Assembly (NCBI RefSeq): GCF_028885415.1
Contig: NZ_CP118527.1
Coordinates: 1,488,001 to 1,552,000 of the forward strand
Direction: 5' to 3'
DNA length: 64,000 bases
From: Streptomyces coeruleorubidus
GTDB lineage: Bacteria > Actinomycetota > Actinomycetes > Streptomycetales > Streptomycetaceae
In this document: positions 8,550 through 24,490 of the stretch, one piece after another
Layout: every line of letters starts with the position of its first letter
Numbering within the stretch: position 1 is the first letter of the stretch
Position numbers and translations under genes: made by a program
Notes under the pieces: model-generated
Seen by the model: only the letters and a program-made list of their open reading frames with translations
Told to the model about the DNA's origin: nothing
The model's database searches: none

Positions 8550-10403
8550 TCACTCCGGCGCGATGCCGTACTCCCGCATCCACCGGTCCAGGTACAGCGC
8601 GGTCTCCAGGCCGTTGCGGTGCAGCTGCGTGTGGTAGTGCCCCTGCGGGAGGTCGAGCATGCGGGCGAGCTCGCCGGCGTCGACGACGTCGAAGGCGGGA
8701 GAGGAGCGGTCGTCGAGCAGCGCCTGGATCCGGGCCCGCAGGTCCTTCTCGTAGAGCTGGTCGGCGGTGGTCGGGTAGGGACTCTTGCGCCTCTCCAGCA
8801 CGGACCTGGGCACGATGTCGCGGGTGGCCCGCTTGAGGAGGCCCTTGGGGTCCCCGCCGGGTGTCTTGAGGTCCCAGGGCGTGTTGTGCACGTACTCGAC
8901 CAGCCGGTGGTCGCAGAAGGGCACGCGGACCTCGAGACCGGCGGCCATGCTGAGCCGGTCCTTGCGGTCGAGCAGGGCGGGCAGCCAGCGGGTGAGGTGC
9001 AGGTGGCTGATCTCGCGCATGCGGCGTTCCGACGGGGAGTCGCCGGGCAGGTGCTCGACCTCCCCGAGGGCCTCCTGGTAGCGGTCCGCGCGGTACTGCT
9101 CGAAGCGGGTGGCCGTCCGGAAGGCCGGGGAGAGCAGTTCGGGGGTGATCAGCTGCATGCGGCTGAGCCAGGGGAAGTTCGCCGCCTGGACGACGGCCGG
9201 GTCGTGGAACCAGGCGTAGCCGCCGAACACCTCGTCGGCCGACTCCCCGGACAGGGCGACCGTGGAGTGCTCGCGTATCCCGCGGAACAGCAGGTGCAGT
9301 GAGGTGTCCACGTCGCCGAAGGTGTACGGAAGGTCGTGGGCGCGCAGGACCGCGTCGCGGTTGACGTCCCGGGTGAGCTCGTCGGCGGAGAGTTCGATGA
9401 GCCGGTGGTCGGTGCCGATGTGCCGGGCGGCTTCGAGGGCGTAGGGGGAGTCGCGCTCCGGCCGGAAGTCGCTGGCCTTGAAGTCGGCTTCGCTGCCGGT
9501 GAAGTCCACCGCGAAGGAGCGGACGGGGGGTTCGCCGGCGCGGGCCTGGACCCGGGCGGCCAGCGCGGTGAGCACGGTGGAGTCCAGTCCGCCGGAGAGC
9601 AGGGTGCACAGCGGTACGTCGGTGACCATCTGGCGGGAGACGGTGTCCTCCAGCAGGGCCCGCACGGTGTCCGCCGTGGTGGCGGCGTCGTCCTCGTGCT
9701 GCTGCCGCCCGAGGCTCCAGTACCGCTCGGTCCGCAGCCCGTCACGGTCGTAGGCCGCGACGCAGCCCGGCGGCACTTCCTCGACGTCCCGGTAGGGGGT
9801 GACGCCCGGCGACTTCATCAGGCCGAGGAGGTCGGCGAGTCCCTGACTGTCGAGCCGGGCCCGGAAACGCGGGTGGGCGAGGATCGCCTTGGGTTCGGAG
9901 CCGAACAGGACGCCGCCCGCGAGCCGTGCGACGTACAGGGGCTTGATGCCGAGACGGTCGCGCACCAGGAGGAGGCGCTGGGCGCGCTCGTCCCACAGGG
10001 CGAAGGCGAACATGCCGTTGAGGCGCCCGACGAAGTCCTGGCCCCACTGGAGGTAGGCGCGCAGGACGACCTCGGTGTCCGAGCGGGTGCGGAAGGCGTG
10101 ACCGAACCCACGGAGTTCTTCCCGGAGTTCGCGGAAGTTGTACACCTCTCCGCTGTAGCTGAGCACGACGGCCGGCCTTTCCCCGGCGGGCCGGTCCGGC
10201 TCCGCGGGGGCCGTCATCGGCTGCCTGCCGCCTTCGACATCGATGATGGCGAGCCGGCGATGTCCGAGGATCGCGTGCTCACCGGCGTGCATTCCGGCGG
10301 CGTCCGGCCCGCGGCAGGCCATGGTCCGCACCATCGGTTCGACGCCGTCCACCTCCTGCGTGAGGTCCTGGCCGAGGTCGGCCCAGCCTGCGATTCCGCA
10401 CAT
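8550..10403 (-). CDS. asnB: Asparagine synthase (glutamine-hydrolysing) / AsnB-type amidotransferase
   Basis: The 617-residue protein begins MCGIAGW, so Cys2 becomes the N-terminal nucleophile of the class II glutaminase domain after Met removal; CRGPDAAG and SYSGEVYNFREL follow. The synthetase half has the PP-loop LSGGLDST and SGESADEVFGGYAW. It would transfer ammonia from glutamine to an adenylated carboxylate. True asparagine synthases and amide-forming enzymes of antibiotic pathways share this layout, so the substrate could be aspartate or a pathway acid. It is divergent from the biosynthetic run that starts at 10820, which suggests but does not prove a role in it. A GGAG-like ribosome site precedes ATG 10403. 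Confidence 0.9.
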   Translation of the reverse strand: MCGIAGWADLGQDLTQEVDGVEPMVRTMACRGPDAAGMHAGEHAILGHRRLAIIDVEGGRQPMTAPAEPDRPAGERPAVVLSYSGEVYNFRELREELRGFGHAFRTRSDTEVVLRAYLQWGQDFVGRLNGMFAFALWDERAQRLLLVRDRLGIKPLYVARLAGGVLFGSEPKAILAHPRFRARLDSQGLADLLGLMKSPGVTPYRDVEEVPPGCVAAYDRDGLRTERYWSLGRQQHEDDAATTADTVRALLEDTVSRQMVTDVPLCTLLSGGLDSTVLTALAARVQARAGEPPVRSFAVDFTGSEADFKASDFRPERDSPYALEAARHIGTDHRLIELSADELTRDVNRDAVLRAHDLPYTFGDVDTSLHLLFRGIREHSTVALSGESADEVFGGYAWFHDPAVVQAANFPWLSRMQLITPELLSPAFRTATRFEQYRADRYQEALGEVEHLPGDSPSERRMREISHLHLTRWLPALLDRKDRLSMAAGLEVRVPFCDHRLVEYVHNTPWDLKTPGGDPKGLLKRATRDIVPRSVLERRKSPYPTTADQLYEKDLRARIQALLDDRSSPAFDVVDAGELARMLDLPQGHYHTQLHRNGLETALYLDRWMREYGIAPE

Positions 10404-10819
10404 GAGAAAGCTCCAACCGGATTCGGATGAGGGTTGCGGACTGCCGGGTAAAACGGCGTGCGGTATGCGCTCCAACTGGGCGCGAAACCCGCTGTTCGGG
10501 CTCGATTAACCGCGGCGTCAAAACGCTGCCGGTTTCACATCGGCGCTCGTAGAGACTAGGCCGGGAAATCAACTCGGGCAACGTACTGAGTAGTAGGCGC
10601 TTTACATCACCACGGAGGCCGTCGATTTTCGGTCGCATATGGCTAGTTGGGCCTCCCAGGGGCGGTTGCACGGCCCACCTTTAGTGCTATACGTTCGCTG
10701 TGGGTCGGGCTCCTGGACCCCGCCAACAAGCCCTGAGCTGTGGCTTCCCGACCCCTCGCAAGGCTGCCCGTCGAGACCGACGTCACGGGCGCGATAAGCG
10801 ATTAACGAGCGAGGTTCGT
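10404..10819. promoter_or_regulatory. Divergent promoter region between asnB and the biosynthetic run
   Basis: These 416 bases hold no convincing gene and are clearly more AT-rich than the flanks, with patches such as GATTAAC, TTTACATCACC and CGATTTTC. They must contain the start signals for both the leftward asnB and the rightward cluster genes. No long inverted repeat was found by eye. One candidate rightward promoter is listed separately. Confidence 0.6.
10666..10693 (+). promoter_or_regulatory. Candidate vegetative promoter for the biosynthetic run
   Basis: TTGCAC (10666-10671) and TATACG (10688-10693) are separated by 16 bases, resembling the -35 and -10 boxes of a principal-sigma promoter. 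Transcription would begin near 10700, leaving a leader of about 120 bases before GTG 10820. This is a by-eye match only. Confidence 0.3.
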
Positions 10820-12160
10820 GTGATCCTGCACACCGACAAACGCCAGGCATTACTCCGTGAGGCACAATCCGAGATACGGGCGAATCAAGGCCGCATCCCG
10901 GCCGAGGACTTCTACGCCAGAAAGCTCTCCGCAGCCTGGCGACGCGCGCGCGGAACACAGGCATACGGCCCCTGTGAGGACCGGGACGATATCGGTGAGT
11001 TCTCCCTGGAGCGTTTCCGGGACCTGCCCGTGACGCCGCGTGAGTCGCTCAAGGCGCAGCCCCTGCGCTATGCGGCAGTGACGCCCACCGAGGCCTCGAA
11101 GTACTACGAGACCACCGGCACGACGGGGCAGCCCACGCCGACCCCGCGCCTGGCCGAGGACACCATCTGGAACACGGTCTCGGTCGCCGAGGCCTGGCGT
11201 CCGCTGCTCGGAGCCGACGAGCGGGTGGTGATCCTCCTGCCGTCCGACGTCGTTCCGGTGGCGGACCTGGTCTCCGGGGTCTGCGAGTACCTGGACCTCG
11301 CGCACATCCGGGCCTATCCGTTCGCCACCGGCATCACAGGCTGGGACCGGCTGGAGGCGATGTGGCGGACCTTCCGCCCCACGACCGTCTTCGTCGCCCC
11401 CGGCGTGGCCCTCCAGTTCACCCGGCTGCTGGCGCAGCGCGGGCAGCTCGACGAGCTCAGCGCCTCGGTCGACCGGCTGATGCTGCTCGGCGAGGTCAAC
11501 ACCCCGCCCTTCCGCACCCGGCTGGGCCGATGGTGGAACGCCGACGCCCACGACGCCAGTTACGGCAGCACGGAGACCGGCACGCTGGCCGCCGCCTGTG
11601 CGCACGGCCGTCAGCACCTGCTGCCGGCCGCCACCTACTTCGAGCTCGCCACCCCCGAGGGCGTCGTCCCGCTGCACGACCGGGGCGGGCACGACCAGGG
11701 CCGGCTCGTCGTCACCCCCCTCAACGCACACGCCAGGCCCCTGCTGCGGCTCGACACCGGCGACGAGGTGTCCGTCGCGACGGACTGCCCGTGCGGCAGC
11801 GCGGCGCCCCGGATCACCGTCCACGGACGCGCCAGCGACGGCCTCCGGGTGCGCGGCACGCCGCTGTCGGTGCGTGCCGTGGAGGAGGTCGTCTACGGCG
11901 TCACCGACGCCACCGGCTACCTGCTGGAGGTGGACAGCGAGGGCACCTACGCCCGGCTGCTCCTGGAACGCGGAGTCGGCACCGGGCGCGACCGCGAGCC
12001 CGAGGAGTGCCGGCGTGTCCAGGCCAGGTCCGAGGAGCTGCTCGGGCTGCGCTGGGACGGGGTCGTGTTCGTCAACTCCCTGCCCGCCAACACCAAGAGC
12101 GGCGCCTCGCAGAAGAGCTGGAAGCGGTCCAACATCCGGGAAGTGGAGGCCGCGCGATGA
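10820..12160 (+). CDS. PaaK-like adenylate-forming ligase with an early TTA codon
   Basis: This 446-residue member of the phenylacetate-CoA ligase branch activates a carboxylic acid as an acyl adenylate and probably passes it to CoA or a carrier thiol. It has the P-loop YETTGTTGQPTPTP (family form SGTTGxPT), the YGSTETG adenine motif, LLRLDTGDEV, and a GRASDGLRVRG hinge. CPCGSAAPR resembles the Cys cluster of PaaK relatives. GTG 10820 is preceded by GCGAGG. Codon 11 (10850-10852) is TTA, the rare leucine codon read by the bldA tRNA in Streptomyces. The stop overlaps the next start (ATGA at 12157). The substrate is not predictable; an aryl or amino acid is plausible. Confidence 0.82.
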   Translation: MILHTDKRQALLREAQSEIRANQGRIPAEDFYARKLSAAWRRARGTQAYGPCEDRDDIGEFSLERFRDLPVTPRESLKAQPLRYAAVTPTEASKYYETTGTTGQPTPTPRLAEDTIWNTVSVAEAWRPLLGADERVVILLPSDVVPVADLVSGVCEYLDLAHIRAYPFATGITGWDRLEAMWRTFRPTTVFVAPGVALQFTRLLAQRGQLDELSASVDRLMLLGEVNTPPFRTRLGRWWNADAHDASYGSTETGTLAAACAHGRQHLLPAATYFELATPEGVVPLHDRGGHDQGRLVVTPLNAHARPLLRLDTGDEVSVATDCPCGSAAPRITVHGRASDGLRVRGTPLSVRAVEEVVYGVTDATGYLLEVDSEGTYARLLLERGVGTGRDREPEECRRVQARSEELLGLRWDGVVFVNSLPANTKSGASQKSWKRSNIREVEAAR

Positions 12161-13941
12161 CCGCCACCGTGACCACCGCCCCGCGCGCCCCGCAGGGCGA
12201 GGGCGTCTCCGGCGGGGAACCCGACCTGTGGTGCACCTACGCCGCCGTGCGGACCCTGGCCTGGCTGGACCGCACCGACACCGTCGCCGACCCGGACGGC
12301 ACGGCCGCCTACCTGAGCGGCCGGCGCAACGCCGACGGCGGTTACGCCTGGAGCCGGGGCATGCTCTCCGACGCCTGGGCCACCTTCTACTGCACGCAGG
12401 CGCTGCGCGACATGGGCCGCCCGGTGCCCGGCACCGAGGCCACGGCCCGCTGGCTGGAGCGCACCTGGTCCGGCGAGGCCTACGCGATGCTCCCGGGACA
12501 GGCCCCGGACGTGTGGGCCACCCACTTCTCCGCCCGCACGGCCGTCGAGCTGTGCGACGGCCCGGTGCCCGACCGCGCCCGCCTGCTGGACTGGCTGAGC
12601 CGGCTCCAGTGCGCCGAGGGCGGACTGAGCTGGTCCCCCGAGGACGCGCGGCGCGGCAAGGCCGACGTACGGGCCTGCTACTACGGGGTCATGGCCTGGC
12701 GGGCCGCCACGGACAACGGCGCCTCGGGAGCACCGCCGTGGGACGTCGCGGCGCTCGCCGCCTGGCTGCGCGACCGCCAGGGCGCGGAGGGCGGCTTCCG
12801 TTTCGCGCCCGCCGCCGAGGTGCCCTGCCTGTGGGCCACGTACCGGGCCGTGGGCGCGCTCGCGGCGCTCGGCCGGGCGCCGCGCGATCCCGACCGCTGC
12901 CAGGCGTGGGTCATGGGCCTGCGCGGTCCCTCCGGCGCCTTCGTCCGCTGGGAGGGGTACGACGTCGAGGACGTGTGGGCCTCCTTCTGTGCCGTGGGCA
13001 CGCTCAAGGCGCTCGGCGCGCCGCTCGCCCCGGTCGCCGACTCCGTCACCGCCCGCATATCCGAACTGGCCTGTCCCGGGGGCGGCTACACCTACCGGGA
13101 GCCCCGGGACGCGGCGGACGCCCTGACCACCGCCGCCGCCGTGCTCTCGGCCGGCCCCGCGGCCCCGCGCCCGGACGGGGTGCGCTGGCTGGAGGGCTGC
13201 CAACTGCCCAACGAGGGCGGCGTGATGTACATGCCGGGCAGGGGCAGCGAGGTGCGCTGCACCCTGTGGGCCCTCGCGGCCGGAGCGTTCGCCGGGGACC
13301 GGGCGGCCCGGCACCGGATCGCCGACTGGCTGGCCGAACTCCAGAACGCCGACGGCGGGTTCGGCTACTGGGAGGGGCGCGGGTCCGACATGGTGTCCAC
13401 GGCCGCGGCGGTGGAGACGGCGGCCCTCCTCGGCGGACCGGACGGGCCCCGTCTCGACGAGCTCGGTCTGGACCTCGCCGGCGTCCTCTCCTTCGTCGAC
13501 TCCTGCCGCACCGCCGAGGGCGAGCCGTTCGCGCACGGCAACGTGCCGGGCGCCGAGCCGGGCCTGCGCCCGGCGCTCCAGGCCCAGCGCGTCCGGCTGC
13601 TCCTCGGCCCCGGCTTCGCCCCGCCCGCCGAGGCCCGCGAGGCCGTCGGCGCCCTGCTCGCCCGCCATCGCGTACGCGGCGGCGGCTACGCGGGCGAGGG
13701 CAACCGGGTCCCCGACCTGCTGTCCACCTACGAGGCGGTGCTGGCCGCCGACCGGGCCCAACTGGCCCTCGACACCGGGCACGTCTCCGCGTTCGTCGAC
13801 CGGGTGCGCGCCGCCGACGGCACCGCGTGGAGCCCGCTGGCCCCCGGCAGTGGCGGACCGCTCGCCGACTGTCTCGGCAGCCTGCTCGCCCGGCGCCTGG
13901 CCTCGGGCCCCGGCGCACTTCCGGCCCTCGCCCTGTCCTGA
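12157..13941 (+). CDS. Prenyltransferase/squalene-oxidase-repeat toroid protein
   Basis: The 594-residue protein is built of about twelve helical-hairpin repeats spaced 43-58 residues apart. Each carries a helix of the form PDVWATHFSARTAVEL, often followed by a GGY/GGF turn (NADGGYAW, AEGGLSW, AEGGFRF, NADGGFGYW). This is the alpha/alpha toroid fold of protein prenyltransferase beta subunits and class II terpene cyclases. Twelve hairpins would make two six-hairpin toroids in tandem. No convincing DXDD acid motif is present and no isoprenoid gene lies nearby, so terpene cyclisation is doubtful. Coupled by ATGA to the ligase before it, it may be the condensing or tailoring enzyme of the pathway, but that is inference. 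Confidence 0.75.
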   Translation: MTATVTTAPRAPQGEGVSGGEPDLWCTYAAVRTLAWLDRTDTVADPDGTAAYLSGRRNADGGYAWSRGMLSDAWATFYCTQALRDMGRPVPGTEATARWLERTWSGEAYAMLPGQAPDVWATHFSARTAVELCDGPVPDRARLLDWLSRLQCAEGGLSWSPEDARRGKADVRACYYGVMAWRAATDNGASGAPPWDVAALAAWLRDRQGAEGGFRFAPAAEVPCLWATYRAVGALAALGRAPRDPDRCQAWVMGLRGPSGAFVRWEGYDVEDVWASFCAVGTLKALGAPLAPVADSVTARISELACPGGGYTYREPRDAADALTTAAAVLSAGPAAPRPDGVRWLEGCQLPNEGGVMYMPGRGSEVRCTLWALAAGAFAGDRAARHRIADWLAELQNADGGFGYWEGRGSDMVSTAAAVETAALLGGPDGPRLDELGLDLAGVLSFVDSCRTAEGEPFAHGNVPGAEPGLRPALQAQRVRLLLGPGFAPPAEAREAVGALLARHRVRGGGYAGEGNRVPDLLSTYEAVLAADRAQLALDTGHVSAFVDRVRAADGTAWSPLAPGSGGPLADCLGSLLARRLASGPGALPALALS

Positions 13942-13961: not shown

Positions 13962-14387
13962 GTGCCCACCATCACCATCCGTACCCCCGAACTCCCCGTC
14001 CCCCGCCGTCGCGCCGTGGCGCTGCGTCTCACCCGCTGGCTCACCGCCCAGGGCGTCCAGGCCGGTCACGTCGTCGTGCGCTTCGAGCCCACCGAGGACG
14101 GCACCGTCTTCTCCGGCGGGATGCCGGTGGAGGCCCTGCCGTACGAGACGGACGGCAGCGGCCTGCGCCACGCGTCCGTGACGGTCTGTGTGGGCCCCGA
14201 CCGCGACGACACCTTCCGCGACGGGCTCGCCCGGTGCATCACCGAGGCGCTCGGCGCCGACGCCCGGACGCCCTTCTGTTACCTGGAGTTCCGCCCCACC
14301 TCCCCGTCCGACGTCTACCTCGGCGCCGGCGAACGGCTGCGCCGGGCCGACGGCACCGCCGTGGAGCCCGCACCAGCCGCCGTCTGA
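13962..14387 (+). CDS. Tautomerase/MIF-superfamily-like protein
   Basis: This 141-residue protein starts MPTITIRT, leaving Pro as the first residue after Met removal, as in the catalytic Pro1 of the 4-oxalocrotonate tautomerase/MIF superfamily. Two beta-alpha-beta halves can be traced: an N-terminal one ending HVVVRFEP...FSGG and a C-terminal one VTVCVGPDRDD...FCYLEFRPTSPSDVYLG. Both end in the strand-turn expected for the fold. The double-unit length fits MIF or CHMI-type members. GTG 13962 has GGAGG at a good distance. It may isomerise an enol or act as a lyase on a pathway intermediate. The assignment is by pattern, without a database search. Confidence 0.55.
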   Translation: MPTITIRTPELPVPRRRAVALRLTRWLTAQGVQAGHVVVRFEPTEDGTVFSGGMPVEALPYETDGSGLRHASVTVCVGPDRDDTFRDGLARCITEALGADARTPFCYLEFRPTSPSDVYLGAGERLRRADGTAVEPAPAAV

Positions 14388-14442: not shown

Positions 14443-14748
14443 ATGACCTCGACCGCGACCGTTCCCTCCCCCGAAGAGATCCACGACCGCACGCGAACCG
14501 TCCTGGCCACCCGTATCGGCGACGCCTTCACCGACGTGCCCTCCGACGCCGACCTCCAGAAGGCGCTCGGTGAGCGCTACGACAGCCTCACCGCCATGGA
14601 GTGCATCTCCGCCGTGGAGAGCGAGTTCGGCATCGAGGTGGACTTCGTCGCCGACGACGTCCGCTTCTGGTTCTCCAGCGTGGAGCGGATGGTGCGCTTC
14701 ACCCACGAGCGACTGGAGGACACGGCGGCCCTCGGGCTGGGGAGCTGA
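14443..14748 (+). CDS. Acyl carrier protein
   Basis: The 101-residue acidic protein has the carrier-protein signature RYDSLTAMECISAVESEFGIEV; Ser48 in the DSL motif would receive the phosphopantetheine arm. It stands alone, directly upstream of a small acyl-AMP ligase (2-base gap), the pairing used to load aryl acids in aryl-polyene-type pathways. No ketosynthase or phosphopantetheinyl transferase lies in the window, so a transferase encoded elsewhere must activate it. ATG 14443 is preceded by AAGGAG. Confidence 0.88.
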   Translation: MTSTATVPSPEEIHDRTRTVLATRIGDAFTDVPSDADLQKALGERYDSLTAMECISAVESEFGIEVDFVADDVRFWFSSVERMVRFTHERLEDTAALGLGS

Positions 14749-14750: not shown

Positions 14751-15767
14751 GTGCCGGACATCGCCTTCGCCACCTCCGGCAGCACCGGCCCGCCGGTGAC
14801 CTGGCTGCGCACCGAGGACCGGTTGCACGCCGAGGTGACACTCGTGCACGAGGCAGTGCTGGGCTCCGCCCGGTTCGGCCGCATCGTGTCCTACGCGCCC
14901 CCCGGCCACCTCTACGGCCGGCTGTACGGGCGCGAGCTGCCCCGGCTCGCGGACATCCCGGTGACCGGCCTGTGGGACGAGCCGCTCACCGTGCCCCCGC
15001 TCGACGACGGCGTCCCCACCCTGCTGGTCTGCCTGCCCTCCACCTGGCAGCTGCTCGCCCGGCACCTCCCGGCACTGGCGCGGCACGGCCGGGTGACGGC
15101 ACTGCACAGCACCGGCCCGGCCACACCGGCCGCCCACCACGTCGCCGGACGCCTCGCGGACACCGGCTTCCGGGCGCATGAACTCCTCGGCTCCACCGAG
15201 ACCGGGGCCGTCGCCCACCGCCCCGTCGCCGGCGAGCACACGTCCGGCCTCCCCTGGCACCTGCTGCCCGACGTGGAGATGCTGCCCGGCTCGGTCGCGG
15301 ACGGCGACGGCACGGCCCGGCGCCTGCGGGTCTCCAGTCCCCGGCTGGCCCGCCGGGCAGGCACCGAAGCACCCCCGGCCGACTGGGAGTTGCCCGACCT
15401 CGTCGCACCGGTGGGCCCGCGCGCCTTCCACCACCTGGGGCGGGCGTCCCGGCTGGTCAAGGTGAACGGAGTGCGCTGCGACCTGGCCCGGGTGGAGGAC
15501 CTGGCCCGCGCCCGCTGCCCCGGCCTGGACCTCGTCTGCGCGCCCGTCAGCGACCCCGTACGGGGAGAGCACTACGAGGTGTTCTACGCCGGGCCCGGAC
15601 CGGTCGACCCGGCGGCCCTGCGCCGGAGTCTTGGCCGGCTCCCCTCGGGGCTGCCCGCGCCGCGCGCCGTGCACCGCGTTCCCCACATCCCCCGCAGCTC
15701 CACCGGCAAGGTCCTCACCGCCGAGCTCACCGCCGCACGCCCCGCCCAGGAGGCCGAGCATGTCTGA
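14751..15767 (+). CDS. Minimal acyl-AMP ligase, probable ACP loader
   Basis: The 338-residue ANL-superfamily enzyme begins almost at the ATP P-loop: residues 6-17 are ATSGSTGPPVTW. ELLGSTETG and the C-terminal SSTGKVLTAEL with its catalytic Lys follow. Most ANL enzymes have 100 or more residues before the P-loop, so this is a short form like the AMP ligases of aryl-polyene clusters. GTG 14751 follows the ACP stop by two bases, so a GTG start just after the ACP and translational coupling are likely. It would adenylate a hydroxycinnamate or similar acid and pass it to the ACP. The substrate is inferred from the ammonia lyase in the same run. Confidence 0.78.
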   Translation: MPDIAFATSGSTGPPVTWLRTEDRLHAEVTLVHEAVLGSARFGRIVSYAPPGHLYGRLYGRELPRLADIPVTGLWDEPLTVPPLDDGVPTLLVCLPSTWQLLARHLPALARHGRVTALHSTGPATPAAHHVAGRLADTGFRAHELLGSTETGAVAHRPVAGEHTSGLPWHLLPDVEMLPGSVADGDGTARRLRVSSPRLARRAGTEAPPADWELPDLVAPVGPRAFHHLGRASRLVKVNGVRCDLARVEDLARARCPGLDLVCAPVSDPVRGEHYEVFYAGPGPVDPAALRRSLGRLPSGLPAPRAVHRVPHIPRSSTGKVLTAELTAARPAQEAEHV

Positions 15768-17202: not shown

Positions 17203-18786
17203 ATGCCCCTCCCTCGCTCATCCGACGACCGACGATCACCCGACACCCTGGTGCGTGACCTGCTGGACCGCAGCAGCGCCCCGCTGGAACCGACGGCCGC
17301 CGAGCAGGACCGCATGGCGGCGGCTCATCGCACGCTGGCCGGCCTCGATGCCTCCCGGCGCGTCTACGGGGTCACGCATGGCTTCGGCCCGCTGGTGGAC
17401 CATCCCGCCGACCCGGACCCGGCCCGCCAGGGCATCGGACTCATCTCCCACCTGGCGAGCGGGCAGGGCGCTCCGCTGCCGCCGGACGTCACCCGCACCA
17501 TGGTCTGGCTGCGGCTGCGCGGCATGGCGCTGGGGCACTCCGCAGTCGCGCCGGAGACCTGGCGGCGTCTCGCCGACCTGGTGAACGCGGGCTTCGTCCC
17601 CGTGGTGCCGAGCGAGGGCAGCCTGAGCGCGAGCGGCGACCTGGTGCCGCTGGCGCACGCCGCACTCGCATGCGCGGCGGACCGTGCCGACAGCGCCCAG
17701 GCATGGTGCCAGGACGCCGAGGGCGGGTGGCGGCGCGAGGACGCGTCCGCCGCGCTGGCCGCCCTGGGCCTGCCGCCCGTCGAGTGGGAGGCCCGGTCCG
17801 CGCTCGCCTTCGTCAACGGCAGCAGCGCCTGCCTGGCCCGCGCCCTGCACACCCACCGCGAACTCGGCGCTCTCACCCGGGCCGCCGCGGTCGTCACCGG
17901 CCGTACGGCCGCGCTGCTCGGCGCCTCGGGCGAACCGTACGAGGACGCCCTCCAGCGGGTGCGCAACCAGCCCGGGCAGCGGACGGCCGCCGCGTGGATC
18001 CGGGCGGAACGCGCCGCCTCGGGCACCGGGAGCGGCACGGCACCCGGCCCGGACCGCCCGCTCCAGGAACGGTATTCGCTGCGGTGCGCCCCGCAGGTCC
18101 TCGGCGCCGTACTGGACCAGCTGGACCTCCAGGGCTCGGTACTGGCCGACGAGGCCGAGGGGTGCAGCGACAACCCCGTTCTCGTCGAGGACACCGTGCT
18201 GCACGGCGGCAACTTCCACGCCGCGCCCGTGGCGTTCGCCTGCGAGACGCACGCCTCGTGCGTGCACCAGGTGGCTTATCTGCTGGAGCGGCAGCTCGCC
18301 CTGGTGCTGGACCCGGCCGTCAACGGCGGGCTGCCCCCGCTGCTGACGCCGCGGCCCGGGGCCGGGAGCGGCTTCGCCGGTGTGCAGATCGCGGCGAGTT
18401 CCCATCTGGGCCGGCTGCGTCAGCTGGGTCATCCGGCGTCCTTCACCGCCGTGCCGACCAATCTGCACAACCAGGACCAGGTGCCGCTCGCCCTCAACAG
18501 CGCCAACGCCGTCGCCGAGATGGCCGAGCGGGCCTGGTGGATCCTCGGCTCGCTGCTCCTCGCGGTCAACCAGCTCGCTCACCTGACCGGGCACCGGGAC
18601 CGGGCGCAGGGGCGGCTGTGGCGGGAGCTGCGGGAGGAGTTCCCGCCGGTGGACCAGGACCGGCCGCTCGCGCAGGAGATCGCCCGGGCGGCCGGGCTGG
18701 CCCGGGCCCGGTTCCTGCCGCTCGCCGTCACGGATCCCGGCCCCGACGCCACCACCACAGACACGCGCCGCACCGCCGCCGCCTGA
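17203..18786 (+). CDS. MIO-dependent aromatic amino acid ammonia lyase (tyrosine type likely)
   Basis: The 527-residue protein has all landmarks of the HAL/PAL/TAL family: catalytic Tyr55 in YGVTHGFG, the self-cyclising Ala143-Ser144-Gly145 in SLSASGDLVPL, CSDNPVL, HGGNFHA and NLHNQDQVPLALNSA. The selectivity pair in LISHLASG is His83-Leu84; His-Leu is typical of tyrosine lyases, Phe-Leu of phenylalanine lyases and Ser-His of histidine lyases. It should give 4-hydroxycinnamate and ammonia, although a tyrosine aminomutase is not excluded. ATG 17203 has AGGAGG upstream. The C-terminal Thr/Asp tail is disordered. The adjacent DAHP synthase fits supply of the aromatic substrate. Confidence 0.88.
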   Translation: MPLPRSSDDRRSPDTLVRDLLDRSSAPLEPTAAEQDRMAAAHRTLAGLDASRRVYGVTHGFGPLVDHPADPDPARQGIGLISHLASGQGAPLPPDVTRTMVWLRLRGMALGHSAVAPETWRRLADLVNAGFVPVVPSEGSLSASGDLVPLAHAALACAADRADSAQAWCQDAEGGWRREDASAALAALGLPPVEWEARSALAFVNGSSACLARALHTHRELGALTRAAAVVTGRTAALLGASGEPYEDALQRVRNQPGQRTAAAWIRAERAASGTGSGTAPGPDRPLQERYSLRCAPQVLGAVLDQLDLQGSVLADEAEGCSDNPVLVEDTVLHGGNFHAAPVAFACETHASCVHQVAYLLERQLALVLDPAVNGGLPPLLTPRPGAGSGFAGVQIAASSHLGRLRQLGHPASFTAVPTNLHNQDQVPLALNSANAVAEMAERAWWILGSLLLAVNQLAHLTGHRDRAQGRLWRELREEFPPVDQDRPLAQEIARAAGLARARFLPLAVTDPGPDATTTDTRRTAAA

Positions 18787-18913: not shown

Positions 18914-20101
18914 ATGACCGCCACGCGCCTGCTGTTGCCGGCCCGGGCCCTTCAGCAGCCCGAATGGGCCTCACTCGACGAACTCAAGGACGTCCTGCTC
19001 TCCCTGGAGGCGAAACCTCCCCTGGTGGACGCCACCGCCTGCGCCGATCTCACCGTCGAGCTCGGGCGGGCCGCCCGGGGTGAGGCCTTCGTGCTCCAGG
19101 CCGGGGAGTGCGCCGAGCGGTTCGCCGACGCCACCCCCGAGACCGTTCTCGCCAAGGCGGACCAACTGCACCGGCTGGCCGACGAGTTCACCGACACCAG
19201 CGGTCTGCCCACCGTACGGATGGGGCGGATCGCCGGGCAGTACGCCAAACCGCGCTCGAAGCCGACCGAGACCCTGTCCGACGGCACGGTGCTGCCCGTC
19301 TACCGCGGGGACGCGGTCAACGCCCCCGAGCCCACCCTGGCGGCACGCATCGCGCTGCCGTCCCGGCTGCTTCTGGCGTACCGGAACGCCGGGAACACCC
19401 TGAGCACCCTGCTCGAACGGGACCTGGGCCTGGCCGGGCGGACGGCGCCCCAGCGCACGTACGCGGGACACGAGGCGCTGCTCCTGGAGTACGAGCAGGC
19501 CCTGGTGCGCCCCGACGCGGACGGGGGCCGCTACGGCTCCTCCGGCCACTTCCTGTGGATCGGCGACCGGACGCGTCAACCGGACCATCAGCACGTGCAG
19601 TTCGCCGCGTCGGTCGGCAACCCCGTCGGTGTCAAGATCGGCCCCGAGGCATCGCCCGAGGACGTCCGCACGCTGGTGCGGATGCTCGGCGACCGGCGCC
19701 GTCCCGGCAGGCTCTCACTGATCGTGCGCATGGGCCGGGAGCACATCGTCCCGCGACTGACCTCCGTGCTCGGGGCACTCGGCGACGAGGCCGCCGGCGT
19801 GGCCTGGATCTGCGATCCGATGCACGGCAACACCCGCACCAACGGCGCCGGGCAGAAGAGCCGTGCGGTCGATGACGTCATGGCGGAGATCGAGGGCTTC
19901 GTGTCGGCCCTGCTCGCCCGCGGCCTGCGTCCGGCCGGTCTGATGCTGGAGACGGCCCATCGCCCCGTCACCGAGTGCGTCGACACGGCGGCGGAACTGG
20001 CCTCGCCCGCCCCGCTGCCCCACTACGAGTCGGCCTGCGACCCGCGGCTGAGCCCCCGCCAGGCCCGCCAGGTGGTGGCCCGCACGGCGGCACTGCTGTG
20101 A
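18914..20101 (+). CDS. Type II DAHP synthase, short form
   Basis: The 395-residue enzyme makes 3-deoxy-D-arabino-heptulosonate 7-phosphate, the first step of the shikimate pathway. Type II motifs are present: LQAGECAERF with the metal-binding Cys, GRIAGQYAKPRS, WICDPMHGNT and LMLETAHRPVTECVD. Primary type II enzymes are about 450-460 residues; this short form resembles the PhzC-like subgroup that lacks allosteric elements, so feedback inhibition is probably weak. ATG 18914 has GGAGG at 18904. A 127-base gap separates it from the lyase. Its role here is probably to raise tyrosine supply. Confidence 0.9.
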   Translation: MTATRLLLPARALQQPEWASLDELKDVLLSLEAKPPLVDATACADLTVELGRAARGEAFVLQAGECAERFADATPETVLAKADQLHRLADEFTDTSGLPTVRMGRIAGQYAKPRSKPTETLSDGTVLPVYRGDAVNAPEPTLAARIALPSRLLLAYRNAGNTLSTLLERDLGLAGRTAPQRTYAGHEALLLEYEQALVRPDADGGRYGSSGHFLWIGDRTRQPDHQHVQFAASVGNPVGVKIGPEASPEDVRTLVRMLGDRRRPGRLSLIVRMGREHIVPRLTSVLGALGDEAAGVAWICDPMHGNTRTNGAGQKSRAVDDVMAEIEGFVSALLARGLRPAGLMLETAHRPVTECVDTAAELASPAPLPHYESACDPRLSPRQARQVVARTAALL

Positions 20102-20218: not shown

Positions 20219-21211
20219 ATGGAGTTCCGACGGCTCGGCCAGAGCGGCCTCGTGATCAGCGAGATCGCCTACGGCAACTGGATCACCCACGGTGCCCAGA
20301 TCGACGAGGAGGCGGCGCACGCCTGCGTGCGAGCCGCGCTCGACGCGGGCATCACCACATTCGACACCGCCGACGTGTATTCCGAGACCCGCGCCGAGAC
20401 CGTGCTCGGCAAGGCGCTCGCCGGTGAGCGGCGCGAGGGCCTCGTGCTCTCCACCAAGGTCTGCCACCCGGTGGGCCCCGGCCCCAACGACCGCGGTCTG
20501 TCCCGCAAGCACGTCATCGAGGGCTGCGAGGGCTCGCTGCGCCGGCTCGGCACCGACTACGTCGACGTCTACTACGCGCACCGCTACGACCCGGCCGTTC
20601 CGCTGGAGGAGACCATGCTCGCCTTCGCGGACCTGGTCCGCTCCGGGAAGGTCCTCTACGTCGGGGTGAGCGAGTGGACCGCCGAGCAGATCAGCCGCGC
20701 GGCCTCTCTCGCCCGGGAGCTGCGCGTCCCGCTGGTCGCCAGCCAGCCGCAGTACTCGATGCTGTGGCGGGTCATCGACTCGCAGGTCGTGCCCGCCTGC
20801 GAGCGGGAGGGACTGGGGCAGGTCGTCTGGTCGCCCCTGGCCCAGGGCATCCTGAGCGGCAAGTACCTGCCGGGCACCGCGGCGCCTTCGGACTCCCGGG
20901 CGGGCACCGAGGCCGGCAAGGGCTTCGTCGACATGCTGGTGGGCCACTGGATGAAGGACGAGGGAGCCCTGCGGGCCGTCCAGGAGCTGGGGCCGGTCGC
21001 CTCGGACCTCGGCCTGACGATGAGCCAGCTGGCGATCGCGTGGGTCCTGCAGAACCCGTCCGTCTCCGCGGCCATCATCGGCGCCAGCCGTCCCGAGCAG
21101 GTCAAGGAGAACGCCGCGGCCTCCGGCGTACGCCTGGAGCAGGCGGTGCTGGACCGCATCGACGAGATCCTCTCGGCGTACATCGTGCGCGACCCCGCGA
21201 GGACGGGCTGA
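20219..21211 (+). CDS. Aldo/keto reductase
   Basis: The 330-residue TIM-barrel reductase has the full catalytic tetrad: Asp49 and Tyr54 in FDTADVYS, Lys80 in STKV and His121 in YAHRYD. The C-terminal NADPH-binding stretch AIIGASRPEQVKEN matches the voltage-gated-channel-beta/YghZ type of AKR. It would reduce an aldehyde or ketone in the pathway. ATG 20219 is preceded by AGAGGA. A 65-base gap leads to the SDR, so both are probably cotranscribed. Confidence 0.9.
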   Translation: MEFRRLGQSGLVISEIAYGNWITHGAQIDEEAAHACVRAALDAGITTFDTADVYSETRAETVLGKALAGERREGLVLSTKVCHPVGPGPNDRGLSRKHVIEGCEGSLRRLGTDYVDVYYAHRYDPAVPLEETMLAFADLVRSGKVLYVGVSEWTAEQISRAASLARELRVPLVASQPQYSMLWRVIDSQVVPACEREGLGQVVWSPLAQGILSGKYLPGTAAPSDSRAGTEAGKGFVDMLVGHWMKDEGALRAVQELGPVASDLGLTMSQLAIAWVLQNPSVSAAIIGASRPEQVKENAAASGVRLEQAVLDRIDEILSAYIVRDPARTG

Positions 21212-21275
21212 ACGTCCCACCCGGAGCAGGGAAACGAGGAGGGAGGCGACAGTACGAGGAGAGGAGCAGGACGGC

Positions 21276-22076
21276 TTGAACGACACAGTCGACACCAAGG
21301 ACACGGGCGACACGGGCGGAAAGGCGGTGATCGTGACCGGCGGCAGCCGCGGGCTGGGGCGGGAGACCACGCTCCGGCTCGCCGCGCAGGGCTGCGATCT
21401 CGCCGTGTGCGGCCGTGACGCGGCCTCGCTGGAGGCGGTGGCCGAGGAGGTGCGCGCCCGGTACGGGCGCACCCTCCACACCGCGCGACTGGACGTGCTC
21501 GACGAGTCCGCCCTCGCGGCGTTCGTACGGGAGTCGGCCGCCCGGCTCGGCCGGGTGAACGGCCTCGTGACCGTCGCGGGCGGCGCGCGCGGTGCGGACC
21601 TGCGCGACACGGAACCGTCCGACTGGGACCTGACGTGCCGGCTCAACGTCACCCATCCGGCGATCGCGCTGCGCGAGGCCGCCGATCACCTGGCCGGGAC
21701 CGGGGGCGGCGCCGTGCTGGTGTCCTCCGTCTCCGGCTGGAAGCCCGCCCCGCCCGCGCAGTACGCGGCGGCCAAGGCCGCGCAGATCCACATGGCCTCG
21801 TCCCTGGCCCGCGAGCTGGGGCCGCGAGGCGTCCGGGTCAACTGTGTCTCGCCCGGCTCCATGCTGATCGAGGGCAAGGGCTGGGCCAGGCTCCGGGACG
21901 AGGACCCGCGGGCCTACCGCGAGTTCGAGAAGGAGTTCCCCGGCGGCCGTCTGGTCGATCCGCGGGACGTCGCCGAGGTGATCGCCTTCCTGCTCTCGGA
22001 CCGGGCACGGGCCGTCAACGGCGCGAACATCCCGGTGGACGGCGGCCAGAACGCGCCCAGCGCATACGGATACTGA
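21276..22076 (+). CDS. SDR family oxidoreductase, cluster-associated
   Basis: The 266-residue short-chain dehydrogenase has the cofactor motif TGGSRGLG (residues 21-28), catalytic Ser150, and Tyr163 and Lys167 in YAAAK; the C-terminal NIPVDGGQ is typical. It begins at TTG 21276, with GAGGAG upstream, because no ATG or GTG precedes the Rossmann core in frame. The N-terminal ten residues are Asp/Thr rich. It follows the AKR, and the two reductases may act on successive carbonyls. It ends the rightward biosynthetic run. Confidence 0.88.
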   Translation: MNDTVDTKDTGDTGGKAVIVTGGSRGLGRETTLRLAAQGCDLAVCGRDAASLEAVAEEVRARYGRTLHTARLDVLDESALAAFVRESAARLGRVNGLVTVAGGARGADLRDTEPSDWDLTCRLNVTHPAIALREAADHLAGTGGGAVLVSSVSGWKPAPPAQYAAAKAAQIHMASSLARELGPRGVRVNCVSPGSMLIEGKGWARLRDEDPRAYREFEKEFPGGRLVDPRDVAEVIAFLLSDRARAVNGANIPVDGGQNAPSAYGY

Positions 22077-22178
22077 GCCGGCACCGAGCCAGTACGGAGC
22101 CGGCACCGCCGCCCCGGAACAGGACGGCACGGCTTCCCCGCAGACGGCCCGGGGAAGCCGTGCCGACGACGGTCCGGC

Positions 22179-22766
22179 TCAGCCCTGCCCCGTGTGGTCG
22201 AGGCCCTCGTGCCCCACATGGGAGACGCCCCGCACGTTCAGCTCGTCCTGCACGTCGTCGAGCAGCTCGCGCAGCAACTCGGCGAGCGCTTCACGCCGCT
22301 CCGGGCCCAGGCGTTCCAGCAACTGTGCCTCGCGGGTGAGCACCCGGTCCACCGTGCGTTCCACCAGCTCGTGCCCGGCCGGGGTCAGTTCGACCAGAAC
22401 CGCGCGGCTGCGGCCGGGGGCGGGGCGGCGCGTGACCAGGTTGTCGCGCTCGGCGCGCGCGACCCGCTGGGAGATGGCGCCCGCGGTCACCAGGGAGTGC
22501 GCGGCGAGGTCCCGGGTGCTCAGGGTGTAGGGCGGCCCGCTGCGGCGCAGCACGCTCAGCAGGTCCAGGGTGGCCGGGTCGACTCCCGCCTCGGCGAGGA
22601 CCCGCCGGCGGTCGTCGCCGAAGTGCTTGGCGAGCTGCCAGATTCTCGTGACCACGCCGATGGAGCCCACCGGGGTCTGGGGCCGCTCGCGGCTCCAGGC
22701 GGCCGCGATGGCGTCCGCCGGGTCCTCTCCCGCCGGTCGGCGATCGCTTTCCTCTGATGCCGTCAT
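22179..22766 (-). CDS. MarR-family transcriptional regulator
   Basis: The 195-residue protein contains a winged helix: LDLLSVLRRSG, then LSTRDLAAHSLVTAGAISQRVARAERDNLV, followed by the RAVLVELTPAGHEL wing. It is transcribed away from an MFS exporter, the classic arrangement in which the regulator represses the pump and itself until a ligand binds. ATG 22766 has AAGGGTGAG before it; a GTG 15 bases upstream is possible. Palindromes in the 92-base gap are likely operator sites. Confidence 0.9.
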   Translation of the reverse strand: MTASEESDRRPAGEDPADAIAAAWSRERPQTPVGSIGVVTRIWQLAKHFGDDRRRVLAEAGVDPATLDLLSVLRRSGPPYTLSTRDLAAHSLVTAGAISQRVARAERDNLVTRRPAPGRSRAVLVELTPAGHELVERTVDRVLTREAQLLERLGPERREALAELLRELLDDVQDELNVRGVSHVGHEGLDHTGQG

Positions 22767-22795
22767 GAGCTCACCCTTCACACCGACCTGCTACA

Positions 22796-22830: not shown

Positions 22831-22858
22831 CAGCGCACGTTGGAAACCGAGTGGTGAT

Positions 22859-24490
22859 ATGCGCACAGAGACACGGAAAGCGAACCCGAAGGCAGGAGCC
22901 GATGCCGGGGCCGCCACCGCGACCGGCCCTCCCCGAGCAACGGGGCGGGACTGGGCGGGACTCACCGTGGTCCTGCTCGCGATGTTCATGAGCCAGATCG
23001 ACATGTTCATCGTGAACGTCGCGGCTCCGGGGATCCAGGCGGACCTGAACGCCGGGTTCGGCCAACTCCAGTTCATCATCGACGGTTACGTGATCGCCTA
23101 CGCCGCGGGCATGGTAACCGGCGGCCGGCTCGGCGACCGGATCGGCCGCAAGCGCACCTTCCAGTACGGCGTGGCCACCTTCACCCTGACGTCCCTGCTG
23201 TGCGCGCTCGCGCCCAGCCCGGCCACGCTGATCGCTGCCCGGGTGCTGCAGGGCCTGTCGGCCGCGGTGATGACACCGCAGGTGCTCTCGCTCATCCGGG
23301 CCGTCTTCGTGCACGAACGCGACCGCGCCCGTGCCGTCGGCGCCTACGGTGCCTCCATCGGCGCGGGCGTCATCGCCGGCCTCGTCGGCGGCGGTCTGCT
23401 GCTCGACCTCGATGTGGCCGGTCTGGGCTGGCGCATGATCTTCCTGATCAACGTGCCGATCGGCGCGGCGATCCTGTGCGCGGCCGTGCCCGCCGTCACC
23501 GAGAGCCGCAGCGCCGATCTGCCGCGACTCGACATCGCCGGAGCCGTCTTCACCGCCGTGCTGCTGCCTCTCGTGCTCATCCCGTTGATCCTCGGCGGTG
23601 AGCACGGCTGGCCTTGGTGGACGTACGTCTGCTTCGCCCTCACCGCGGCCGGCACCGTGGCCTTCCTGCGGTGGGAGCGCCGGACGGAATCCCAGGGCAA
23701 CGACCCGCTGCTGCCGAGCCGGCTGCTGCGGGCCAAGGGCTTCCCGCTCAGCATGGGCACCGTGCTGCTGTTCTTCTCCGGCAACGCCGGGCTGTTCCTG
23801 GTTCTCACCTTCCACCTCCAGTCGGGACTCCGGCTGACGCCACTGGCCGCGAGCATGGTCTTCGTGCCGCTCGGCCTCGGATTCATCGCCGCCTCCGCGG
23901 CCTGCCGCGGGCTCGCGGCCCGGTTCGGCATCGGGGTGTCGGTGGCGGGCGGTCTGGTCATGGCGGCCGGTCTCGCCGCCGTGCCCGCCGTCACCGGCCT
24001 GGAGAGCACGAGCCAGGCGATCGGGCTCGCGGTGGTGATGGGGGTCTCCGGGTTCGGGCAGGGCCTGGTCGTCGCCCCCCTGGTGGACACCGTCCTCTCC
24101 CGGGTCCACCCGGACGACGCGGGCGCCGGATCGGGTGTGCTGAACACCGTCACCCAGGCGGGCATGGCCTTCGGTGTGGCTGTCATCGGGGCCCTGTACC
24201 GCGGCTTTCTGGGTACCAATCCCCAGGCACCGGGTCCGGACACCGGCATGGCCGACTTCGTGGCGGCCTTCGACCTCACCGCCTACGTCCTCGCGGCACT
24301 CGCCGTCGGCACGGCCTTGCTCGCCGTCCGGCTGGGCCGCGTCCCCGCGAGCGCGGAAGCCGCGGGGGGTGCGGGGGCCGAGGGCGGCCAAGGCCCCATC
24401 GACCCGGCCGGGCATGTTGAGGAGCCCGTCGGCGCCGCCCGCTTTGCCGTACACCGGGAGACGCCCGCCGTCACCGACACCGACCGATAG
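22859..24490 (+). CDS. MFS drug exporter, DHA2/EmrB-QacA type
   Basis: The 543-residue membrane protein carries the first-helix signature LAMFMSQIDMFIVNVAAPGI, the GGRLGDRIGRKRTF loop between helices 2 and 3, and about 14 hydrophobic segments, the DHA2 pattern. It should export a small molecule by proton antiport, most simply the product of the neighbouring pathway. The divergent MarR gene suggests ligand-induced expression. The cytoplasmic C-terminal tail is Ala/Gly rich. Two terminator hairpins follow. Confidence 0.9.
   Translation: MRTETRKANPKAGADAGAATATGPPRATGRDWAGLTVVLLAMFMSQIDMFIVNVAAPGIQADLNAGFGQLQFIIDGYVIAYAAGMVTGGRLGDRIGRKRTFQYGVATFTLTSLLCALAPSPATLIAARVLQGLSAAVMTPQVLSLIRAVFVHERDRARAVGAYGASIGAGVIAGLVGGGLLLDLDVAGLGWRMIFLINVPIGAAILCAAVPAVTESRSADLPRLDIAGAVFTAVLLPLVLIPLILGGEHGWPWWTYVCFALTAAGTVAFLRWERRTESQGNDPLLPSRLLRAKGFPLSMGTVLLFFSGNAGLFLVLTFHLQSGLRLTPLAASMVFVPLGLGFIAASAACRGLAARFGIGVSVAGGLVMAAGLAAVPAVTGLESTSQAIGLAVVMGVSGFGQGLVVAPLVDTVLSRVHPDDAGAGSGVLNTVTQAGMAFGVAVIGALYRGFLGTNPQAPGPDTGMADFVAAFDLTAYVLAALAVGTALLAVRLGRVPASAEAAGGAGAEGGQGPIDPAGHVEEPVGAARFAVHRETPAVTDTDR

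What the first reader, a model, noticed from the sequence alone, without database searches (positions are those of the whole stretch)
8550..24490. Compact aromatic biosynthetic cluster of unrecognised type
Twelve or so genes combine an MIO ammonia lyase, short DAHP synthase, standalone ACP, two unlike acyl-AMP ligases, a toroid-repeat protein, tautomerase-like protein, amidase, two reductases, AsnB, and a MarR/MFS pair. No ketosynthase, NRPS module or terpene synthase is present. I do not recall a described pathway with exactly this set. The ACP-loaded hydroxycinnamate and an acyl-transfer or amide-forming chemistry are inference.
Basis: partly seen in the sequence, partly recalled or inferred. 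Interest (0 to 1): 0.85.

Follow-up and report, generated by a model that had tools for sequence, protein, structure and literature searches.

The report
Unnamed aromatic pathway with toroid enzyme
A 16-kb island in this Streptomyces-type genome encodes a small-molecule pathway built on a five-gene core that recurs in distant soil bacteria; the core looks made to activate and process a plant-like aromatic acid with an unusual ring-shaped enzyme, and its product is unknown.

Summary
Window 8550-24490 carries the 13 genes described, between sbcD and a UPF0029 gene that lie within 0.9 kb of each other in 10 of 18 related genomes.

Five genes (PaaK-like ligase, alpha-alpha toroid, Pro1 tautomerase, ACP, short AMP ligase) form a fixed-order core in Streptomyces, Amycolatopsis, Nocardia, Pseudomonas and Rhizobium and diverge together (r 0.89-0.96, 49 loci). 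Ammonia-lyases of three motif classes and DAHP synthases of both classes recur around it (each in 27 of 34 actinobacterial representatives). AsnB, ATP-grasp ligase and aldehyde dehydrogenase replace one another.

Best reading: an ACP-dependent pathway without ketosynthase or NRPS modules that activates a hydroxycinnamate-type acid, processes it with the toroid and a cis-CaaD-fold tautomerase, and here ends in an amide. Against it: no ammonia-lyase beside the core in 12 of 12 Pseudomonas and 2 of 2 alphaproteobacterial representatives, and two relatives deleted the lyase while the core stays under purifying selection.

Substrate, chemistry and product are unproven. The listings of ten open-access searches held no description; MIBiG and subscription journals were out of reach.

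The parts
8550..10403 (-). AsnB-type glutamine-dependent amidotransferase (MCG N-terminus, SGGLDS motif); nearest solved structure 7ylz, listed as hydroxyamidotransferase
10404..10819 (.). 416-bp divergent intergenic region, 61.5% GC against 73.6% for the cluster; probable promoter region (inferred)
10820..12160 (+). lig1, core: PaaK-like AMP ligase (Pfam AMP-binding 18.4 bits, below cutoff); remote relative of 6siw (listed as PaaK-like ligase), AjiA1 and BagE/FevW
12157..13941 (+). tor, core: alpha-alpha toroid protein; residues about 15-295 match protein prenyltransferase beta subunits; no DxDD; 4-bp overlap with lig1
13962..14387 (+). taut, core: tautomerase-superfamily protein with N-terminal Pro1; cis-CaaD/Cg10062-like fold
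14443..14748 (+). ACP, core: free-standing carrier protein, D47-S48-L49 invariant in the 46 aligned rows
14751..15767 (+). lig2, core: short (338 aa) AMP ligase, remote to 4-coumarate--CoA ligase TIGR02372
15760..17154 (+). amidase-signature hydrolase; K90, S158/S159 and S182 (triad assignment recalled) conserved in at least 95% of 31 rows
17203..18786 (+). MIO aromatic ammonia-lyase (ASG motif; His at the selectivity position of 2o6y): probable tyrosine ammonia-lyase
18914..20101 (+). short class II DAHP synthase (one of five class II DAHP synthase places in the genome)
20219..21211 (+). aldo-keto reductase
21276..22076 (+). short-chain dehydrogenase/reductase
22179..22781 (-). MarR-family regulator, divergent from the MFS gene
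22859..24490 (+). MFS transporter, probable exporter

Best explanation
The block is a horizontally mobile secondary-metabolite island organised around a five-gene core, lig1-tor-taut-ACP-lig2. Proposed route: the short DAHP synthase raises shikimate flux; the MIO lyase turns L-tyrosine into p-coumarate; lig2 adenylates it and loads it on the free-standing ACP; the toroid holds and transforms the ACP-bound acyl group, with the Pro1 tautomerase acting on its 3-substituted acrylate double bond or on a tautomer of the intermediate; lig1 activates a carboxylate and joins it to an alcohol or amine (ester or amide); AsnB converts a remaining carboxylate to a primary amide with glutamine nitrogen, in place of the ATP-grasp ligase or aldehyde dehydrogenase of sister clusters; the amidase trims, deprotects or transfers; AKR and SDR reduce; MFS exports under MarR control. 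Shown: gene content, boundaries, core conservation and co-divergence, conserved catalytic motifs. Inferred: every reaction, the substrate and the product.
For: Core order and co-divergence. MIO lyase in 27 of 34 and DAHP synthase in 27 of 34 actinobacterial representatives, with lyases of three motif classes and DAHP synthases of class I and class II: repeated recruitment to one core. In 5 of 20 loci measured, the predicted MIO start lies between 26 bp before and 8 bp after the lig2 stop. lig2's best NCBIfam hit is 4-coumarate ligase, weakly. The tautomerase model matches cis-CaaD, whose substrate is a 3-substituted acrylate, with its Pro on Pro1, and Met1-Pro2 are the only invariant residues in 37 loci. 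lig1's nearest solved relatives are 6siw and AjiA1 (ester-forming role recalled). AsnB, ATP-grasp and aldehyde dehydrogenase do not co-occur in 34 representatives (8, 7, 8).
Against: An MIO lyase was found in the fetched flanks of 0 of 12 Pseudomonas and 0 of 2 alphaproteobacterial representatives and is missing in 7 of 34 actinobacterial ones; MIO genes elsewhere in the 12 Pseudomonas genomes score 528-616 bits, HutH-like (my reading of the scores). L012 and L014 carry an internally deleted TAL while their other cluster genes keep dN/dS 0.11-0.41; L012's genome has a single MIO match, 622 bits. The window MIO enzyme's best NCBIfam hits are histidine ammonia-lyase models (314 bits, cutoff 524), and it passes no curated cutoff. 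lig1 and lig2 fall far below the curated cutoffs of all named ligases. No catalytic role for the toroid is established and its C-terminal half was barely tested by fold search. AsnB is as close to an own-genome paralogue (54%) as to Pseudomonas cluster AsnB (54-57%), and its tree is unresolved.
Confidence: 0.5

Rival explanations
1. The core does not act on a hydroxycinnamate. It activates another acid (an amino acid, 4-hydroxyphenylpyruvate, a benzoate), and the ammonia-lyase is an optional later addition supplying a second building block.
For: MIO lyase missing beside the core in 12 of 12 Pseudomonas, 2 of 2 alphaproteobacterial and 7 of 34 actinobacterial representatives; TAL deletion without decay of the core; L018, L020 and L040 keep a DAHP synthase without an MIO lyase.
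Against: Repeated recruitment of lyases of three motif classes, in five loci apparently translationally coupled to lig2; p-coumarate is common in soil and rhizosphere and could be taken up (established knowledge).
Confidence: 0.35
2. A bagremycin/ferroverdin-like system: TAL supplies a phenol and lig1, a BagE/FevW-type synthetase, esterifies or amidates it with an aromatic acid; the other core genes are tailoring.
For: bag/fev clusters also hold a TAL, a DAHP synthase, a PaaK-family synthetase and a MarR regulator (PMC6692506, passages); lig1 matches BagE_FevW at 70 bits.
Against: No 3,4-AHBA genes or UbiX/UbiD-type decarboxylases among the 13 proteins; lig1 and the MIO lyase score 70 and 166 bits against cutoffs of 800 and 1000, and lig1's top NCBIfam hit is another family (DVU_1553, 74 bits); 'carrier protein' occurs 0 times in the main text of the bagremycin paper.
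Confidence: 0.12
3. A hydroxamate pathway: AsnB is a TsnB9-type hydroxyamidotransferase and the product is an aryl or hydroxycinnamoyl hydroxamic acid.
For: Nearest solved structure is 7ylz hydroxyamidotransferase, E 1.4e-168 over residues 1-608 of 617.
Against: The amidooxygenase and its accessory subunit, which complete the minimal cassette in PMC13418202 (part 1 of 4 read), have no counterpart among the 13 proteins; the genome has two further AsnB paralogues at 52-54%, so the match does not single out hydroxamates.
Confidence: 0.1
4. The MIO enzyme is a tyrosine aminomutase (or acts on another amino acid) and the ACP carries beta-tyrosine or another acid.
For: MIO fold shared with tyrosine aminomutase 2qve (E 3.7e-45); best NCBIfam models are histidine ammonia-lyases, below cutoff; carrier-bound beta-tyrosine is known in C-1027 (recalled).
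Against: The best solved match is 2o6y (E 1.3e-59; listed as putative histidine ammonia-lyase, known to me as RsTAL), and tyrosine 2,3-aminomutase scores 207 bits against a cutoff of 501.
Confidence: 0.08
5. Chance neighbours, not a pathway.
For: None found.
Against: Conserved order over phyla, co-divergence r 0.89-0.96, empty insertion site.
Confidence: 0.01

Closest known systems
Bagremycin (bag) / ferroverdin (fev) clusters
   Same: TAL, DAHP synthase, PaaK-family synthetase, MarR regulator (PMC6692506, passages)
   Different: bag/fev have 3,4-AHBA synthase genes and decarboxylases; no toroid, tautomerase or ACP in the passages read; our ligase and lyase fall far below the BagE and BagA cutoffs
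Avenalumic acid (ava) / p-coumaric acid (cma) clusters
   Same: acyl-ACP ligase with free-standing ACP, MFS, an aromatic acrylate product (PMC10777205, abstract and passages)
   Different: those use ketosynthase/chain length factor, 3,4-AHBA and a diazotase; none of these here, and coumarate would come from tyrosine directly
Trichostatin / benzohydroxamate TsnB6-7-9 cassette
   Same: AsnB-family enzyme close to 7ylz hydroxyamidotransferase
   Different: no amidooxygenase or accessory subunit among the 13 proteins
6siw PaaK-like ligase (NatL2, name recalled) and AjiA1 (6wuq)
   Same: closest solved relatives of lig1; ester-forming role recalled
   Different: only 82-85 bits; benzoxazole amidohydrolase and 3-hydroxyanthranilate genes (recalled) not among the 13 proteins
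Protein prenyltransferase beta subunits and class II terpene cyclases
   Different: about 14% identity, no DxDD; genomic context is acyl activation, with no prenyl-donor gene among the 13
cis-3-chloroacrylic acid dehalogenase family (tautomerase superfamily)
   Different: other cis-CaaD catalytic residues were not compared; context is biosynthetic

Membership tests
Bagremycin/ferroverdin-type cluster | BagE/FevW synthetase at curated cutoff | tested here: not met
   NF041217: 70.1 bits against 800
Bagremycin/ferroverdin-type cluster | BagA/FevV TAL at curated cutoff | tested here: not met
   NF041222: 165.8 bits against 1000
Bagremycin/ferroverdin-type cluster | 3,4-AHBA synthesis genes and UbiX/UbiD-type decarboxylases | tested here: not met
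   no such family among the 13 cluster proteins
Bagremycin/ferroverdin-type cluster | TAL, DAHP synthase, PaaK-family synthetase and MarR together | tested here: met
   compared with PMC6692506 passages
ava/cma highly reducing type II PKS cluster | ketosynthase and chain length factor | tested here: not met
   none among the 13 proteins
TsnB6/7/9 hydroxamate cassette | hydroxyamidotransferase homologue | tested here: inconclusive
   E 1.4e-168 to 7ylz, but own-genome AsnB paralogues are 52-54% identical
TsnB6/7/9 hydroxamate cassette | amidooxygenase and accessory subunit | tested here: not met
   each of the 13 proteins has another assignment; the rest of the genome was not searched for them
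Tyrosine ammonia-lyase | MIO-forming Ala-Ser-Gly | tested here: met
   GSLSASGDL; PF00221 364.5 bits
Tyrosine ammonia-lyase | His at the RsTAL selectivity position (H89, recalled) | tested here: met
   aligns with the His of 2o6y; the 2o78 chain has Phe there;
Tyrosine ammonia-lyase | curated model score (flexirubin TAL, BagA TAL) | tested here: not met
   200.4 against 700 and 165.8 against 1000; the best hits are histidine ammonia-lyase models, 314 and 295 bits, also below cutoff
Tyrosine ammonia-lyase | p-coumarate formation from tyrosine | not testable with these tools
   needs an enzyme assay
4-coumarate--CoA ligase TIGR02372 (lig2) | curated score | tested here: not met
   46.4 bits against 334.7
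Class II terpene cyclase (tor) | SQHop_cyclase_N domain at Pfam cutoff | tested here: met
   PF13249 29.3 bits against 26.2, with no single stretch passing on its own
Class II terpene cyclase (tor) | DxDD motif | tested here: not met
   absent in the window protein; a DxDD string somewhere in 3 of 60 homologues, placement not checked
Protein prenyltransferase beta subunit (tor) | alpha-alpha toroid fold | tested here: met
Protein prenyltransferase beta subunit (tor) | zinc-ligand Asp/Cys/His set | tested here: inconclusive
   the four alignments printed were to terpene cyclases, not to prenyltransferases
Tautomerase superfamily | N-terminal Pro1 after Met removal | tested here: met
   Met1-Pro2 the only invariant residues in 37 rows; 4 further loci have an in-frame TTG followed by a Pro codon just upstream of the default start. 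In choosing starts the script preferred a start followed by CC
Tautomerase superfamily | beta-alpha-beta fold | tested here: met
cis-CaaD subgroup | full catalytic residue set besides Pro1 | not tested
   no residue-level structural alignment was available
Acyl carrier protein | phosphopantetheine Ser in a DSL motif | tested here: met
   D47-S48-L49 invariant in 46 rows

The most novel reading that the evidence does not exclude
lig1-tor-taut-ACP-lig2 is a new kind of carrier-protein assembly unit in which a terpene-cyclase/prenyltransferase-fold toroid, not a ketosynthase or condensation domain, performs the bond-forming or cyclising step on an ACP-bound aromatic acrylate (perhaps by protonation to a quinone-methide-like intermediate), helped by a cis-CaaD-type Pro1 enzyme. 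Interchangeable endings (AsnB amide, ATP-grasp peptide bond, aldehyde dehydrogenase plus AOC-like barrel) would make it a modular bacterial phenylpropanoid system spread over Actinomycetota, Pseudomonas and Rhizobiaceae.
Probability: 0.25. Interest if true: 0.88.

Novelty: new variant of a known kind. Interest (0 to 1): 0.63.

Why it matters
If right, this is a rare, phylum-crossing biosynthetic gene cluster family that lacks the usual marker enzymes (ketosynthase, NRPS condensation domain, canonical terpene synthase). It would give the toroid fold a role in acyl-ACP chemistry, which none of the papers listed in my searches describes, and a cis-CaaD-fold enzyme a role in biosynthesis. The family comes with natural experiments: three interchangeable end modules, repeated ammonia-lyase recruitment, and TAL deletions that leave the core intact. 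A version sits on a plasmid of the biocontrol strain Rhizobium rhizogenes K84 and others in the Pseudomonas putida group, so its products may matter in the rhizosphere.

Tried and rejected
Literature: ten searches of the open-access library. Eight were aimed at this gene set or its chemistry; one search was aimed at hydroxamates and at the K84 plasmids. Of the listed papers (titles and starts of abstracts seen) none describes this gene set; searches matched 333 and 51 papers of which 10 and 15 were listed, so the unlisted ones were not seen. The five '-ACP' names of coumaroyl/cinnamoyl gave 0 papers; one search gave 0. MIBiG and subscription journals could not be searched. The K84 passages (PMC4231840) do not link the core to a known agrocin. 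No Rfam family reached its gathering score in 8000-25500.

Considered and set aside: chance neighbourhood (synteny); terpene pathway (no DxDD, no prenyl-donor gene among the 13); hydroxamate pathway (no amidooxygenase among the 13); AsnB as a cluster-specific clade (tree unresolved, with long-branch warnings); zinc-site test of the toroid (inconclusive); bagremycin membership (cutoffs not met).

Absence note: the structural second look tested mainly residues 6-295 of the toroid, so nothing is claimed about the fold of its C-terminal half.

Full report
What is there. The window lies at 1,488,001-1,552,000 of a 9.41-Mb single-contig genome; names of the closest proteins point to Streptomyces. 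Pfam and NCBIfam support AsnB, a PaaK-like AMP ligase (lig1), an alpha-alpha toroid (tor), a Tautomerase_3-like protein (taut), an ACP, a short AMP ligase (lig2), an amidase, an MIO lyase, a short class II DAHP synthase, an aldo-keto reductase, an SDR, a MarR regulator and an MFS transporter (NCBIfam only for the first ten). Several assignments are weak by sequence alone: lig2 has no Pfam hit, lig1 scores 18.4 bits against 29.9, taut 16.1 against 25.7, and the ACP 20.4 against 20.8. lig1-tor overlap by 4 bp, ACP-lig2 are 2 bp apart and lig2-amidase overlap by 8 bp, as expected of an operon.

Island boundaries. The flanks are an SbcD-type nuclease and a UPF0029 protein. In 10 of 18 other same-genus genomes with an sbcD match these two genes lie within 0.9 kb of each other; in the other 8 the UPF0029 gene was not within the fetched 1.5-kb flank. 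The block therefore looks like a 16-kb insertion at a fixed place. It is rare: in the genus sample 8 of 391 other genomes have a toroid match at E 1e-10 or better, of which 6 are full length, one is a 98-residue fragment and one is weak; in the family sample 8 of 393 others at 1e-60; in the phylum sample 0 of 395 others. The samples overlap, and only the three best first-look candidates per genome were scored.

The core. tblastn of the window proteins against the fetched loci shows lig1-tor-taut-ACP-lig2 in fixed order from Streptomyces, Amycolatopsis, Nocardia, Saccharopolyspora and Actinokineospora to the Pseudomonas putida group and a Hyphomicrobiales genome. The plasmid pAtK84c of R. rhizogenes K84 and pC5.7c of strain C5.7 carry it too. 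Of 66 toroid rows including the window, 54 remained below 90% toroid identity, and the 48 with more than 4.5 kb on both sides were counted (6 dropped): 34 actinobacterial, 12 Pseudomonas-group (one labelled Pantoea), 2 alphaproteobacterial. In the 34: lig1 33, taut 33, ACP 32, lig2 33. In the 12: lig1 12, taut 11, ACP 12, lig2 12. In the 2: lig1 2, lig2 2, ACP 1, taut 0 by tblastn; for the Rhizobium plasmids the annotation shows small ORFs in the right places, and the ones in the taut place carry Met1-Pro2 at 22-23% identity. The clearest exception is L058, with only lig1, tor and a divergent taut. Pairwise distances of the five proteins over 49 loci correlate at r 0.89-0.96; relatedness of the hosts contributes, so this shows shared history, not physical interaction. 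By eye, many lig2 homologues have the same organisms and contig lengths as toroid homologues.

What surrounds the core. In the 34 actinobacterial representatives, homologues of the query proteins were found as follows: MIO lyase 27, DAHP synthase 27, SDR 28, third PaaK-like ligase 21, amidase 20, MFS 20, AsnB 8, aldehyde dehydrogenase 8, ATP-grasp 7, class III aminotransferase 5. AsnB, ATP-grasp and aldehyde dehydrogenase do not co-occur; 11 of 34 have none of the three. All 12 Pseudomonas-group representatives have amidase and AsnB, 5 have a DAHP synthase, none an MIO lyase; the 2 alphaproteobacterial ones have amidase, ATP-grasp, third ligase and SDR. These counts miss unrelated genes of the same function, for instance the MFS genes annotated on the Rhizobium plasmids. 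Pfam on genes of two example sister clusters (L043, L024) confirmed a class I DAHP synthase, an aldehyde dehydrogenase-family protein, an AOC_like barrel (91.7 bits; Dirigent 18.4 bits, below cutoff), a class III aminotransferase and an ATP-grasp protein with a sub-cutoff L-amino acid ligase C-terminal domain. Genomes have 0 to 5 MIO matches, mostly 2 or 3, in 4.8-11.6 Mb, so about 1% of random 20-kb stretches would hold one (my arithmetic); 27 of 34 is far above that.

Is the substrate a hydroxycinnamate? For: the MIO genes fall into three motif classes (HL; YHL with N or V; SH) and so were probably recruited more than once (no tree was made). The window enzyme has the MIO Ala-Ser-Gly and a His that aligns with the selectivity residue of 2o6y (RsTAL, recalled). 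In L021, L024, L029, L032 and L035, of 20 loci measured, the predicted MIO start lies between 26 bp before and 8 bp after the lig2 stop. Against: the Pseudomonas, Rhizobium and Hyphomicrobiales clusters have none nearby, and MIO genes elsewhere in the 12 Pseudomonas genomes score 528-616 bits, like hutH; the Hyphomicrobiales genome has none. The window enzyme's own best NCBIfam hits are histidine ammonia-lyase models, below cutoff. In L012 and L014, whose cluster proteins are 82-96% identical to the window's, the TAL gene is reduced to its ends; L012's genome has a single MIO match of 622 bits, L014's has a second one of 380 bits elsewhere. The remaining genes give dN/dS 0.11-0.41 between L012 and L014, like the TAL-bearing pair window-L013 at 0.13-0.41. 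L014 shows two matching pieces each for lig1 and amidase, a frameshift or sequencing error, so it is weaker evidence than L012. The pathway may use p-coumarate from the surroundings, or TAL may supply only one of several acids.

Comparison with the known. bag/fev clusters share TAL, DAHP synthase, PaaK-family synthetase and MarR (PMC6692506, passages) but, in the passages read, not the rest of the core. ava/cma clusters share an acyl-ACP ligase and ACP (PMC10777205, abstract and passages) but depend on a ketosynthase. Aromatic supply plus PaaK-like ligase is therefore precedented; toroid plus Pro1 tautomerase plus ACP plus two ligases is what I could not match.

Verdict. A real, mobile, conserved biosynthetic cluster of a family I found no description of. 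My estimates: that it is a pathway, about 0.95; that the core is one functional unit, about 0.9; that the acid here is a hydroxycinnamate, about 0.55; detailed chemistry of tor, taut and lig1, speculative.

Noticed in passing
L012 15000-15480 and L014 14980-15480, against window 17203-18786: Internal deletion of the TAL gene in two close relatives; only the gene ends remain while the rest of the cluster is kept.
   Followed up: yes
G000:C1:1285508-1292037 (outside the window): A second place in the genome with a short class II DAHP synthase close to an AsnB paralogue (54% identical to the cluster AsnB), perhaps another aromatic amide cluster.
   Followed up: no
L060 6586-19319 (R. rhizogenes K84 plasmid pAtK84c, CP000631.1): A full version of the core with GNAT, amidase, MFS, LysR, third ligase/SDR and ATP-grasp on a plasmid of the crown-gall biocontrol strain. 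The record's 3-oxoacyl-ACP reductase entry covers what are two genes (AMP-binding, SDR) on pC5.7c: a fusion or a merged call.
   Followed up: partly
L043 6068-17689 and sister loci L041, L044, L045, L048, L049, L074, L078: Sister clusters pair the core with an aldehyde dehydrogenase, a class I DAHP synthase, a third ligase, a small secreted-looking AOC-like barrel protein with weak dirigent similarity and, in seven of these eight, an MIO lyase of another motif class.
   Followed up: partly
L014 8669-11770: lig1 and tor read as one long ORF, with lig1 and amidase each in two matching pieces: frameshift, fusion or sequencing error.
   Followed up: no
L022, L023, L053, L083: The MIO enzymes of these clusters have SH, not HL, at the selectivity position; they may be an aminomutase or a histidine-type lyase, so the aromatic unit may differ.
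   Followed up: no
L085 (unnamed same-genus genome): A cluster with only a partial toroid match beside taut, ACP, lig2, MIO lyase, DAHP synthase, ATP-grasp and amidase.
   Followed up: no
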